This document shows positions 7,480 through 11,675 of a stretch of DNA of 35,692 nucleotides, piece after piece. The notes under the pieces are model-generated. The model ran no database searches. It worked only from the letters and a program-made list of their open reading frames with translations, and was not told the origin of the DNA. This DNA comes from Sulfurimonas sp. (GTDB lineage: Bacteria; Campylobacterota; Campylobacteria; Campylobacterales; Sulfurimonadaceae). Location: NCBI GenBank assembly GCA_026988315.1, contig JALSLJ010000096.1, positions 1-35,692 on the forward strand, given 5' to 3'. The translations under genes and the position numbers were made by a program. Position 1 is the stretch's first letter; each line of letters begins with the position of its first letter.

Positions 7480-7533
7480 CTACCCTTAAAGCAAATTTAG
7501 ATATTATAATTAATATTTATAAAGGAAAAATCT

Positions 7534-8219
7534 TTGACTTTCAATCAAATTAAAATGGCAATCTATGCAATCATATTAACAAACTACTATGGTGTAAAAT
7601 TAAAACTAGCAAAAAACATTCAAGAAAAAAACAGCTCCGAATTGACTATGCACAAACACTTCTTGGCAAACTCAATATCAATGTAAATATAATCCATAAA
7701 GAAAAGCTTCCTCATGATGGAAAATTTTTATTAGCTTCCAATCATAGAAGTGTTATAGACCCTCTTATTGTTGAACTACTCACAAAAGATACCAATCTAT
7801 TTGGTAACTGGATATCAAAAAAAGAGCTTTACAACTCTCTGTTTTTCGGACTTTTTGTAAGAAATGGTGGTTCAGTTTTACTAGATAGAGATTCCTCTCA
7901 AATGGGTGGTTTTTTTTCTGACATCAAAGAGTATGTAAAACAAGGTCAATCCATATACATCTTCCCAGAAGGTACACGAAATAAAAGTAAAAATGAGATT
8001 GGTGATTTTAAAGAGGGAGCAAGAATAATCGCCATTAAAAACCGCATAGATATTCTCCCTGTGTTTATCAGGAGCAATGCCAATGAAGCCCTGATGTCTT
8101 CACTAAAGAGCGGAAAAAAGCATTTTACAGTTGATATCGAAGTTGGGGATATCATAAGCTACAAAGACAAATCACTCCCATTTGAAGAGGCTTATAAAAA
8201 GCAGTTTAAAATAGCTTAA
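7534..8219 (+). pseudogene. PlsC-like 1-acyl-glycerol-3-phosphate acyltransferase, frame broken near residue 32
   Basis: Acyltransferases of this family add the second acyl chain to make phosphatidic acid. The catalytic HX4D motif is present (NHRSVID, coded from 7740), as are FPEGTRNKSK and the late ILPVFIR. The N-terminus lies in another frame: TTG at 7534 with AAAGGA seven bases upstream reads MTFNQIKMAIYAIILTNYYG... and continues to a stop at 7684. The two frames join sensibly (...EKKQLRIDYAQTLLGKLNI) if the A7 run at 7625-7631 had eight As. As given, the longest ATG-started ORF is only 7902-8219 and lacks HX4D. Options are a recent pseudogene, slippage-dependent expression or a sequence error. 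Reconstructed length is about 229 residues, typical of the family. Confidence 0.75.
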
Positions 8220-8867: not shown

Positions 8868-9656
8868 GTGAATGTAAAATTTATACAAAATATTGGTGAA
8901 AAGACAATTGATACATTTGCTTCATTGTATGAAGGTGTCAAATTTACGCTTATTTGCATAGAACATATGCTTCGACCAAGCAGTTACAATCCAGCAATGA
9001 AAATGGTTTTAACAAAGCAAATATATTTTACAGCAGTGAGTATCATCCCAATGTTTGTGATGATTGCTATCGTATTTGGCTCTGTCATCATTGGTTTTGT
9101 TATTGCACTCGCTAGTGAATATAACCTCCAAGATAAAATAGGTTCTATTATCATCACCTTTGTTATAAATGAGTTTGCACCTTTTTTTACAGCATTGCTA
9201 ATCTCCCTTCGTTCAGGTACCGCAGTAAACACCGAAATAGCGGTTATGAAAGTCAATAAAGAGTTAAATACTCTTATTGAGTACAAAATTGATATTATTA
9301 ACTATCTCTTTTTGCCAAGAATCATAGGGGGAATTATAAGTGTAACAGCACTCTCCATCATCTTTGCTCTCATCATGCTATCTAGTGGCTATCTTTTTAC
9401 ACTCTTTTATATGAATATGGATTTTCATACATATGAACAACTGCTAATCAATGCTATTGAAGTTAGAGATATAGTTATACTTCTTTTAAAAAGTGTAGCT
9501 TTTGGATTTGTTATTATGCTTATCCCCATTTATAGTGGACTAAAAACTGCTTCAGCTTATACAGCCATCCCCATCTCTGTTTTAAATGGCATGGTCAAGC
9601 TATTTATAGCTATATTTTTTATCGAGGTGTTATCATTACTACTCCAATCACTTTAA
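8868..9656 (+). CDS. mlaE: MlaE-family lipid ABC transporter permease
   Basis: 262-residue inner-membrane permease of MCE (Mla/Iam) systems that move phospholipid between the membranes. The MlaE signature is present at about residues 100-145: NEFAPFFTALLISLRSGTA followed by NTEIAVMKVNKELNTL. About five or six hydrophobic segments follow the N-terminal amphipathic region. It starts at GTG, supported by a strong GGAGG seven bases upstream. It heads a four-gene set with the same order as the Campylobacter iam/MCE locus (permease, ATPase, MCE protein, lipoprotein). The permease looks intact although the neighbouring ATPase is not. Confidence 0.9.
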   Translation: MNVKFIQNIGEKTIDTFASLYEGVKFTLICIEHMLRPSSYNPAMKMVLTKQIYFTAVSIIPMFVMIAIVFGSVIIGFVIALASEYNLQDKIGSIIITFVINEFAPFFTALLISLRSGTAVNTEIAVMKVNKELNTLIEYKIDIINYLFLPRIIGGIISVTALSIIFALIMLSSGYLFTLFYMNMDFHTYEQLLINAIEVRDIVILLLKSVAFGFVIMLIPIYSGLKTASAYTAIPISVLNGMVKLFIAIFFIEVLSLLLQSL

Positions 9657-9754
9657 AATTATTTCATAAGCGCCAAGATATTGAGGAGTTTTTAACAACT
9701 CAAAACAACTACTCTCTCATTAGTATTGATACACCCCTTATATCAAACCTAAAT

Positions 9755-10108
9755 ATGGTAGAAAATATCGCTCTCATACAAGAGTTTCATCAACTTCTCT
9801 CAATAAACAAAGCAGAACAAATAGCAAGTGAGTATCTCAGTAAAATCGCACTTACTCATATATCTCAAAATAGACTCAACCAATGCTCTTTGCTTGAGAT
9901 ATTTTATATTATGTTTATACGCGCACTTATGACTCAAGAGATGGATGTTATAATATCCTCACCTTTATTGTTGATTGGTGAGTTGCAAAATATGAAAAAT
10001 GTTATAAACAATCTAATATCTCTCAATGGGAATAAAAATATTTTAATTCTTGATACCAAAACAAATGAAATACACTATGAAGGATGTTCATGCCATATAG
10101 TAAAATGA
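9755..10108 (+). CDS. Truncated MlaF-like ABC ATPase without Walker A
   Basis: This position should hold the ATPase of the MCE transporter. The 117 residues from ATG 9755 follow the second half of an ABC ATPase. MVENIAL matches the segment after the Q-loop. NRLNQCSLLEIFYIMFIRAL sits where LSGGQ...RVAIARAL belongs, but LSGGQ is not conserved. DVIISSPLLL stands in for Walker B without DE, and ILILDTKTNEIHYEG resembles the C-terminal strand region. The frame is open back to about 9602 with no ATG, GTG or TTG. An ATT at 9635, after GAGG, is the nearest candidate and would add 40 residues, still without a P-loop. It overlaps mlaD by about 19 bases. It may be a non-catalytic structural subunit or a remnant. 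Confidence 0.6.
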   Translation: MVENIALIQEFHQLLSINKAEQIASEYLSKIALTHISQNRLNQCSLLEIFYIMFIRALMTQEMDVIISSPLLLIGELQNMKNVINNLISLNGNKNILILDTKTNEIHYEGCSCHIVK

Positions 10109-11025
10109 AATTTGCCGTTGGACTTTTTGTCATCACACTGTTTCTTGCAATTGCCAGTTTTTTATACCTAGTGCTTCAAGAAAAAGGAACATTTGATCAA
10201 AGATATGATTATCACTTCTCAACATCTAGTGCGAACTCTTTTAGCATAGGGATGCCACTAAAATTTTCAGGCTTTAATGTTGGTGTAATTGACGCCATAG
10301 CACTAAGCGATGATGGGTCTGTAAAGATGACCTTTTCTGTCTCAGAGGCAAATAAAAAGTGGATAAGTGAGGATTGCTACCTACTCCTTAAAAAACCACT
10401 TATTGGCTCACCCCATATAGAAATTCATGCTACTATTGGAAAAAAACCTCTCCCCCCATCATCAACCTTAGATATAAAGATGAGTGATGACATTAACGAT
10501 ATGATTTCAAAATTAGAACCTGTGGTTGATAATATTATTAAGATTATCAGTAGTGTGCAAAAGATGACATCTGCCATCTCCAAAGAGGATTCAGACCTAT
10601 TTTCCACTTTAAAAAATTTGAATACATTTAGTGCCAAACTCGCAAATAATGATTCACTCCTAACAAGCATAACAGGAGATGAAGCATCTACAAAAAATAT
10701 AATCAATTCTTTAAATACAACTACACAAATTATGCAAGAGGTACATCAAATCACTACACAACTCAACACAATAGTTGCAAATATAAATGAAGAGATGCTA
10801 AAGCCATCAGCCACACTCATACAAAAACTTAACCTTATCATGGAAGATGTACAACTTAAATTAGAAACCCTTGATGCAACTGTAAAAGCAGTGGGTAGCT
10901 ATGATGAAGATTTACTTCATTTAAAAGAACAAATATCTGTAGGTTTACAAAAATCTAATCAGATTATGGATAAGGTTGACTCCCTAATGCAAACACAAGA
11001 AAATTCAGAGGTGAAGCTTCCATGA
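10090..11025 (+). CDS. mlaD: MlaD-family MCE-domain protein
   Basis: About 311 residues. One N-terminal membrane anchor (KFAVGLFVITLFLAIASFLY) is followed by a single MCE domain (about residues 35-115), including FSIGMPLKFSGFNVGVIDAI and LLLKKPLIGSPHIEI. A long helical, coiled-coil-like C-terminus continues to the end. MCE proteins form hexameric rings that bind lipids in the periplasm. ATG 10090 has AAGGA five bases upstream and is preferred over the ATG at 10084. It overlaps the truncated ATPase upstream and the lipoprotein downstream (ATGA), so the operon is tightly coupled. Confidence 0.88.
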   Translation: MPYSKMKFAVGLFVITLFLAIASFLYLVLQEKGTFDQRYDYHFSTSSANSFSIGMPLKFSGFNVGVIDAIALSDDGSVKMTFSVSEANKKWISEDCYLLLKKPLIGSPHIEIHATIGKKPLPPSSTLDIKMSDDINDMISKLEPVVDNIIKIISSVQKMTSAISKEDSDLFSTLKNLNTFSAKLANNDSLLTSITGDEASTKNIINSLNTTTQIMQEVHQITTQLNTIVANINEEMLKPSATLIQKLNLIMEDVQLKLETLDATVKAVGSYDEDLLHLKEQISVGLQKSNQIMDKVDSLMQTQENSEVKLP

Positions 11026-11675
11026 AAAACATAATCTTACTAGCTATAGCTATACTTTTATTGAGTGGATGTTCGTTTAAAACTCCCGATAACTCTTGGC
11101 AACTTAAAAGTAGTTCCGCTTTTGAATCGTACAAAAAAAATTTCCTTTATGGTTATGATAGATTGGCAAGCAATGATTTACAGAGCGCTGTTGCTCATGC
11201 AAAAATGGGTGCAGACTTCACAACACTCGCCCGTGTCTATCTTGGTGCGTGTGCTTTAAATATCTCCGTAGGTATTCAAGATGAATGCAAAAACTACAAA
11301 GCTCTCTCTAACTTAGTTGAGGATCAAAAATTAAATGCTTATCATGCTTTTATAACTTCATCTTTAGAGACAAAACAGATACAACATCTACCAGCCATTT
11401 ATCAAAAATTTGCACTAAGTATTCTAAAATCAGATCAAAAATCTGCAAATGAAGAGCTAATAAAAATGGATACAATAACTTCTCAACTTTTATCTGCTGC
11501 AATCATAAAAGAGAAATTATCAAAAACAACTATCCAGAGTATAATTAAAAGTGCCTCTTTTTATGGCTATAAGAGAGCTGTCATCTATTGGCTAAAAATA
11601 TTAAAAGATAGAACTACGGATACAGATGAAAAAAAGATAATAAATAAAAAACTTTCTGTTTTGGAATCAGTTTGA
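11022..11675 (+). CDS. Lipoprotein, last gene of the MCE operon
   Basis: 217 residues with a lipoprotein signal peptide (MKNIILLAIAILLLSGC, lipobox LSGC) and a mostly helical mature part. It overlaps mlaD by 4 bases and ends just before a strong terminator at 11701. In the Campylobacter MCE locus a lipoprotein sits in the same place. It may link the MCE protein to a membrane, like MlaA or PqiC, but no such domain is recognisable by eye. Confidence 0.75.
   Translation: MKNIILLAIAILLLSGCSFKTPDNSWQLKSSSAFESYKKNFLYGYDRLASNDLQSAVAHAKMGADFTTLARVYLGACALNISVGIQDECKNYKALSNLVEDQKLNAYHAFITSSLETKQIQHLPAIYQKFALSILKSDQKSANEELIKMDTITSQLLSAAIIKEKLSKTTIQSIIKSASFYGYKRAVIYWLKILKDRTTDTDEKKIINKKLSVLESV

What the first reader, a model, noticed from the sequence alone, without database searches (positions are those of the whole stretch)
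9602..10108. MCE lipid transporter operon whose ATPase has lost Walker A
mlaE, mlaD and the lipoprotein look intact and tightly coupled, but the ATPase slot holds only the second half of an ABC ATPase. It has no P-loop, a degenerate LSGGQ, no Walker B Glu, and no ATG/GTG/TTG start for its upstream 40 codons. The frame is otherwise open, which argues against random decay. The subunit may be a non-catalytic adaptor that recruits another ATPase, or the importer/exporter may work without ATP.
Basis: partly seen in the sequence, partly recalled or inferred. Interest (0 to 1): 0.65.

Follow-up and report, generated by a model that had tools for sequence, protein, structure and literature searches.

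The report
Dead half-ATPase kept in lipid transporter
In Sulfurimonas and its relatives, a lipid-transport operon has replaced its ATP-burning engine with a small, well-folded protein that cannot bind ATP, that almost always starts with the very rare start codon AUU, and that appears to clamp onto the membrane subunit, so an ABC-type lipid transporter may have become a machine that runs without ATP.

Summary
The slot between mlaE and mlaD encodes a conserved 157-residue pseudo-NBD, found in 57 genomes (Sulfurimonas and other Campylobacterales, plus one gammaproteobacterial MAG). It is under purifying selection (dN/dS 0.07-0.26) and predicted to fold well (pLDDT 92; ABC ATPases in the PDB at TM about 0.7). 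No copy has a Walker A or SGG motif; one diverged copy is longer but equally P-loop-less. The 'missing start' is ATT at 9635, with GAGG exactly 7 nt upstream. This ATT is kept in 56 of 57 genomes; the exception uses ATG 3 nt downstream and has released the mlaE codon that otherwise encodes ATT. In the overlapping mlaE frame only one codon choice is tolerated (TCA 53/53 Ser against 16.5% elsewhere). Conservation of the pseudo-NBD peaks in the region expected to receive MlaE's coupling helix. In all five operons that lost the gene, MlaE's coupling segment is shortened (36-45 aa instead of 47 in 58/58), although those five are one clade. Most likely it is a structural, ATP-independent stand-in for MlaF that docks on MlaE. 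Docking and ATP independence are inferred, not shown. New variant of a known kind.

The parts
8868..9656 (+). mlaE-like permease, 262 aa, no STAS domain, GTG start
   Evidence: Pfam MlaE 8e-44; aligns with solved MlaE chains 6xbd/7ch8; separate clade from STAS-MlaE and orphan MlaE
9186..9326 (+). MlaE segment holding the coupling helix between TM2 and TM3 (residues 107-153; helix about 128-146)
   Evidence: aligned to E. coli MlaE; 47 aa in 58/58 half-ATPase operons, 36-45 aa in 5/5 operons without the gene
9624..9627 (+). Shine-Dalgarno core GAGG, 7 nt before the ATT
   Evidence: identical sequence and spacing in 56/57 genomes
9635..9637 (+). ATT start codon of the pseudo-NBD, inside the mlaE reading frame
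   Evidence: ATT at this place in 56 of 57 genomes; one ATG swap in L134
9635..10108 (+). pseudo-NBD ('half-ATPase'), 157 aa, no Walker A/B, no LSGGQ, Q-loop Gln replaced by Ser; overlaps mlaE by 22 nt
   Evidence: translation, alignment, model, fold search, dN/dS
10090..11025 (+). mlaD-like MCE protein (ATG 10090 favoured over 10084), overlapping the end of the pseudo-NBD
   Evidence: Pfam MlaD 1.3e-6; NCBIfam MCE family 3.8e-13; operon order kept in relatives
11022..11675 (+). lipoprotein, last gene of the operon
   Evidence: lipobox LSGC, weak LPAM_1 match; found in the same place in relatives

Best explanation
The gene makes a real 157-residue protein: an ABC ATPase fold cut down to a core that cannot bind or hydrolyse ATP. 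It is translated from a conserved AUU codon behind a strong Shine-Dalgarno inside the end of mlaE. It docks through its Q-loop/helical cleft on the coupling helix of MlaE, as MlaF does in the canonical complex, and acts as a structural cytoplasmic cap for the MlaE-MlaD-lipoprotein assembly. That assembly then works without ATP, probably as a passive or partner-driven phospholipid conduit, beside a separate, complete, ATP-driven Mla system present in most of the same cells. Shown here: conservation, start codon signature, loss of all ATP motifs, fold prediction, purifying selection, and shortening of the MlaE coupling segment where the gene is absent. Inferred: physical docking, lipid as substrate, ATP independence, and low expression from AUU.
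For: 57 genomes, including single-contig ones (G031, G350, G379, G137, G194, G565), keep an open frame of nearly fixed length. dN/dS 0.07-0.26 in close pairs. No Walker A or SGG in 56 aligned copies, and the catalytic positions are replaced. AF2 pLDDT 92.3, pTM 0.89; Foldseek finds ABC ATPases, LptB TMq 0.73 and MlaF 0.66. AUU start: GAGG-N7-ATT in 56/57; mlaE codons frozen at GAG 55/55, GTG 49/50 Val, TCA 53/53 Ser, TTR 55/55 Leu against 48, 20, 16.5 and 35% elsewhere; 51/55 have no NTG start upstream in the frame. L134 swaps to ATG and its Ser codon becomes AGC; L148 and L169 keep ATT although MlaE has Ile or Leu instead of Ser. Docking: lowest column entropy in residues 28-51, 1.11 against at least 1.78 elsewhere, the stretch around and after the Q-loop. 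MlaE coupling segment 47 aa in 58/58 with the gene, 36-45 in 5/5 without, with different deletions. The coupling helix mediates MlaE-MlaF contact in E. coli (PMC7790496; PMC7367683). ATP-independent lipid transfer from MlaD to MlaC has been reported (PMC10212509). Canonical STAS-MlaE coexists in 30 of 32 genomes tested.
Against: No expression, proteomic, binding or transport data. The five operons without the gene form one clade, so the correlated change is perhaps one loss followed by several deletions, and their MlaE evolves fast throughout, so part of the shortening may be general relaxation. No complex could be modelled. The post-Q-loop region is conserved in ABC ATPases generally, so its conservation here does not by itself prove docking on this MlaE. 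The substrate was not tested.
Confidence: 0.62

Rival explanations
1. Adaptor model: the pseudo-NBD pairs with, or recruits, the intact MlaF of the second Mla system (or another ABC ATPase), so the complex is still ATP-driven.
For: An intact MlaF lies next to a STAS-MlaE in the same genome (L039), and canonical MlaE coexists in 30/32 genomes.
Against: The pseudo-NBD has neither Walker A/B nor a signature, so both composite ATP sites of a mixed dimer would be defective. G124 (20 contigs, 100% complete) and G284 keep the operon without a STAS-MlaE match. Operons without the pseudo-NBD lose the coupling segment rather than keep it for MlaF.
Confidence: 0.13
2. Regulator model: the pseudo-NBD competes with MlaF for coupling helices, including those of the canonical MlaE, and damps the ATP-driven system. 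The weak AUU start would keep it scarce.
For: It keeps the docking region but no catalysis, and AUU initiation is weak in reporters, about 10% of AUG in S. aureus (PMC13009471).
Against: It is encoded between its own mlaE and mlaD, overlapping mlaE, in 57 genomes. The coupling segment of its own MlaE, not of the canonical one, changes when it is lost. G124 lacks the canonical STAS-MlaE.
Confidence: 0.1
3. Decaying remnant of mlaF that happens to be open.
For: ATP motifs are gone, the N-terminal part is deleted, and in one clade the gene is lost altogether.
Against: 57 open copies across several families, dN/dS 0.07-0.26, a confident fold, and a conserved start site.
Confidence: 0.03
4. The frame is read by programmed frameshifting from mlaE (MlaE-ATPase fusion) or from the internal ATG at 9755, not from ATT.
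For: The frame lies -1 to mlaE and overlaps it by 22 nt; ATG 9755 is what a gene finder would call.
Against: Several relatives have TGA directly before GGT-GTT-ATC-ATT and no slippery heptamer after it. The ATG is not conserved (M, I, V, A at that place). Conservation starts at the ATT. L134 swaps ATT for ATG.
Confidence: 0.05

Closest known systems
MlaFEDB / MlaEFD phospholipid transporter (E. coli, Veillonella)
   Same: MlaE permease with coupling helix, MCE protein, NBD-fold gene in the same operon
   Different: The NBD subunit lacks every ATP-binding motif and the antiparallel subdomain; the start codon is AUU; a lipoprotein gene ends the operon
Campylobacterota STAS-MlaE/MlaF/MlaD/lipoprotein operon (own C56, L039)
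   Same: Same gene order and the same genome
   Different: MlaE is about 28% identical and carries a STAS domain; its MlaF has Walker A (GPSGCGKT) and ISGG
ABC transporters with degenerate nucleotide-binding sites (heterodimeric exporters)
   Same: Evolved loss of catalytic residues in an NBD
   Different: There one composite site is impaired but the P-loops remain; here the P-loop itself is absent and no active partner is encoded in the operon
AUU-start genes infC and pcnB of E. coli and cvfC1 of staphylococci
   Same: Conserved weak AUU start behind a Shine-Dalgarno
   Different: Here the AUU lies inside the overlapping mlaE frame, where the conserved Leu codon forbids any NTG start; the gene encodes a transporter subunit
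LetB/PqiB-type MCE systems
   Same: MCE proteins thought to move lipids without an ABC ATPase (own knowledge)
   Different: Those use LetA/PqiA, not MlaE and a pseudo-NBD

Membership tests
Functional ABC ATPase (MlaF type) | Walker A GxxGxGK[ST] | tested here: not met
   absent in 56 aligned copies
Functional ABC ATPase (MlaF type) | Walker B Asp and catalytic Glu | tested here: not met
   S-S in the window; V/L/I at the Asp place and T/S/R at the Glu place are the commonest; Asp is kept in a few diverged copies
Functional ABC ATPase (MlaF type) | LSGGQ signature | tested here: not met
   CSLLE type; no SGG in any copy
Functional ABC ATPase (MlaF type) | Q-loop Gln and H-loop His | tested here: not met
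   Ser in 50/56 at the Gln place; Asp-Thr at the H-loop place; the H-loop assignment rests on the model
ABC NBD fold | RecA-like core plus helical subdomain | tested here: met
   AF2 pLDDT 92; Foldseek TMq 0.61-0.74 to ABC ATPases
ABC NBD fold | antiparallel beta (ABC-beta) subdomain | tested here: not met
   157 aa, no such strands in the model; a low-confidence relic in L094
Mla/MCE transporter | MlaE permease | tested here: met
   Pfam 8e-44; PDB MlaE chains 2e-18
Mla/MCE transporter | MCE-domain protein | tested here: met
   Pfam MlaD above cut-off; NCBIfam MCE 3.8e-13, below its cut-off
Mla/MCE transporter | ATP-driven phospholipid transport | not testable with these tools
   needs reconstitution
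AUU-initiated genes | conserved AUU behind a Shine-Dalgarno at functional spacing | tested here: met
   56/57 with GAGG-N7-ATT; frozen mlaE codons; ATG swap
AUU-initiated genes | initiation shown experimentally | not testable with these tools
   no ribosome profiling or proteomics available

The most novel reading that the evidence does not exclude
An ABC lipid transporter lineage that has given up ATP. Its NBD survives only as a P-loop-less structural clamp on the permease, made from an obligatory AUU start codon forced by gene overlap; later lineages discard even the clamp and the permease's coupling helix while keeping the MCE channel. This would be a stepwise record of an ABC transporter turning into an energy-independent lipid conduit.
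Probability: 0.45. Interest if true: 0.8.

Novelty: new variant of a known kind. Interest (0 to 1): 0.64.

Why it matters
Whether Mla-type MCE systems need ATP, and in which direction they move phospholipids, is debated. A natural lineage that keeps MlaE and MlaD under selection but has no working ATPase subunit makes the ATP question directly testable. The conserved AUU start inside an overlapping gene is, to my knowledge, one of very few long-conserved non-NTG starts in bacteria. It means gene finders will miss or truncate this family: here they would aa instead of 157.

Tried and rejected
Pseudogene, assembly gap or sequencing error: rejected, because single-contig and independent genomes have the same frame. 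Start at ATG 9755 or at ATC 9632: rejected, because ATG is not conserved, and the ATC codon varies (CTC, GTC, AAT, ATT) while ATT does not. Programmed frameshift: no slippery site seen, and TGA directly upstream in some species. Full-length relatives in the slot: none; G392 (L094) has a 216-aa version, also without a P-loop, whose extra N-terminal part models poorly. Own infC as an AUU control: its apparent start is TTG, so no support either way. Orphan MlaE genes in other families have no ATPase or MlaD neighbour, but form a distinct clade and keep a canonical coupling motif. Literature searches for inactive MlaF/NBD subunits of MCE systems found no precedent in the held library.

Full report
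Setting. The window is contig C96 of a 2.19 Mb genome (99.85% complete, 112 contigs). Relatives carrying the same genes are Sulfurimonas and other Sulfurimonadaceae/Campylobacterales records. The operon is mlaE (8868-9656), the finding (9635-10108), mlaD (10090-11025) and a lipoprotein gene (11022-11675).

The frame contains ABC-ATPase-like sequence from the Q-loop strand through the helical subdomain to the H-loop strand, without a P-loop, Walker B acids or signature. Pfam finds nothing significant. Profiles built from relatives do hit true ABC ATPases, in the genomes of the order (E about 1e-10 to 1e-5) and in the PDB (MacB 2.8e-9, LptB, MlaF), always over the part after Walker A.

It is a conserved gene family. 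Searches of relatives, of 399 genomes of the order and of 228 of the family gave 57 genomes with the gene between this mlaE and mlaD, mostly 152-161 aa. Identity to the window copy is 22-57% over the first 31. dN/dS in the closest pairs with measurable dS is 0.07-0.26, against 0.03-0.08 for mlaE. None carries Walker A or SGG. AlphaFold2 with 31 sequences gives pLDDT 92.3 and pTM 0.89, and Foldseek matches ABC ATPases over about the whole length (LptB TMq 0.73, MlaF 0.66). The order of elements (strand 5-10, helix 13-21, strand 26-29) suggests that the strand and helix flanking the P-loop are still there, the P-loop itself is reduced to a short turn, and the antiparallel subdomain is deleted; this mapping is my inference from the order of elements. 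A longer relative, L094 (216 aa, no P-loop), keeps a poorly modelled N-terminal part before the equivalent strand at 64-67 and may be an intermediate.

The start codon is ATT. In 56 of 57 genomes the conserved protein begins at ATT, with GAGG exactly 7 nt upstream; the codon before it varies. In the overlapping mlaE frame, synonymous choice is frozen: GAG 55/55, GTG 49/50 Val, TCA 53/53 Ser, TTR 55/55 Leu, where the same genes elsewhere use these at 48, 20, 16.5 and 35% (relatedness makes a formal p-value inappropriate). Two copies keep ATT although MlaE has Ile or Leu in place of Ser (L148, L169). One copy (L134, the same genome as L146) has lost ATT: MlaE there reads Ser-Leu-Trp as AGC TTA TGG, which creates ATG 3 nt downstream of the old site, and the Ser codon is no longer TCA. 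This natural swap is the strongest single piece of evidence. The overlap also explains why the start is not NTG: any NTG at this place would turn the invariant MlaE Leu codon into TGN (Cys, Trp or stop). AUU starts are known for infC, pcnB and staphylococcal cvfC1, with about 10% of AUG activity in S. aureus reporters (PMC13009471), so low expression is a reasonable inference here.

What it docks on. In E. coli the MlaE coupling helix between TM2 and TM3 carries the contact with MlaF (PMC7790496), and NBDs receive it in a cleft (PMC7367683). In the pseudo-NBD the best conserved stretch is residues 28-51, the Q-loop strand to the next helix (mean entropy 1.11 bits against 1.78-2.68 elsewhere). 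In five Sulfurimonas genomes (G036, G505, G571, G561, G373) the operon has no pseudo-NBD gene. In these the MlaE coupling segment is 36-45 aa with different deletions, whereas it is 47 aa in all 58 MlaE from operons with the gene. The five form one clade inside the others (UFBoot 87, SH-aLRT 95), so this is one loss at least and the deletions are later events. G571 also has an mlaE frameshift, and G561's mlaE is split over two contigs; these may be assembly effects.

Energy. A complete STAS-MlaE/MlaF/MlaD/lipoprotein operon lies elsewhere in the genome (L039), and a STAS-type MlaE is found in 30 of 32 genomes checked. G124 and G284 gave no such match; the other MlaE in G124 is an orphan. Because the pseudo-NBD has neither half of a composite ATP site, pairing with a borrowed MlaF would not give a normal motor. 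I therefore favour ATP-independent work, in line with ATP-independent transfer from MlaD to MlaC reported in vitro (PMC10212509), but this is inference.

Limits. No expression or biochemical data; complex modelling was not available; the docking argument rests on sequence conservation and on one clade of losses. The genome-contig scan used one peptide pattern and would miss diverged copies.

Noticed in passing
window 7530-8219 (break near 7627): A plsC-like acyltransferase gene upstream of mlaE is split by a frameshift near an A-run; in G002 (L035) an intact 228-aa homologue lies directly before mlaE. Real decay or a homopolymer error; cannot tell.
   Followed up: partly
L037 4245-6228 (G056): A Septu PtuA/PtuB anti-phage pair (PADLOC E 9e-110 and 1e-38) is inserted between the pseudo-NBD and mlaD.
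   Followed up: yes
L129 (PEWX01000107.1): The whole operon with GAGG-N7-ATT occurs in a MAG labelled Piscirickettsiaceae (Gammaproteobacteria), 37% identical to the window copy: horizontal transfer or a binning error.
   Followed up: partly
L099-L106: Orphan 260-270 aa MlaE genes, often next to an acpS-like and a fliL-like gene, without MlaF or MlaD neighbours, in several other Campylobacterales families; they keep the canonical TEQID coupling motif and form their own clade.
   Followed up: partly
L142 (G571) and L143/L173 (G561): In two operons without the pseudo-NBD, mlaE itself is broken (1-nt frameshift; split over two contigs) while mlaD stays open: possible continued reduction towards MCE protein plus lipoprotein only, or assembly effects.
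   Followed up: partly
L175 (own infC): infC of this genome appears to start with TTG behind GAGG, not with the ATT known from E. coli.
   Followed up: no
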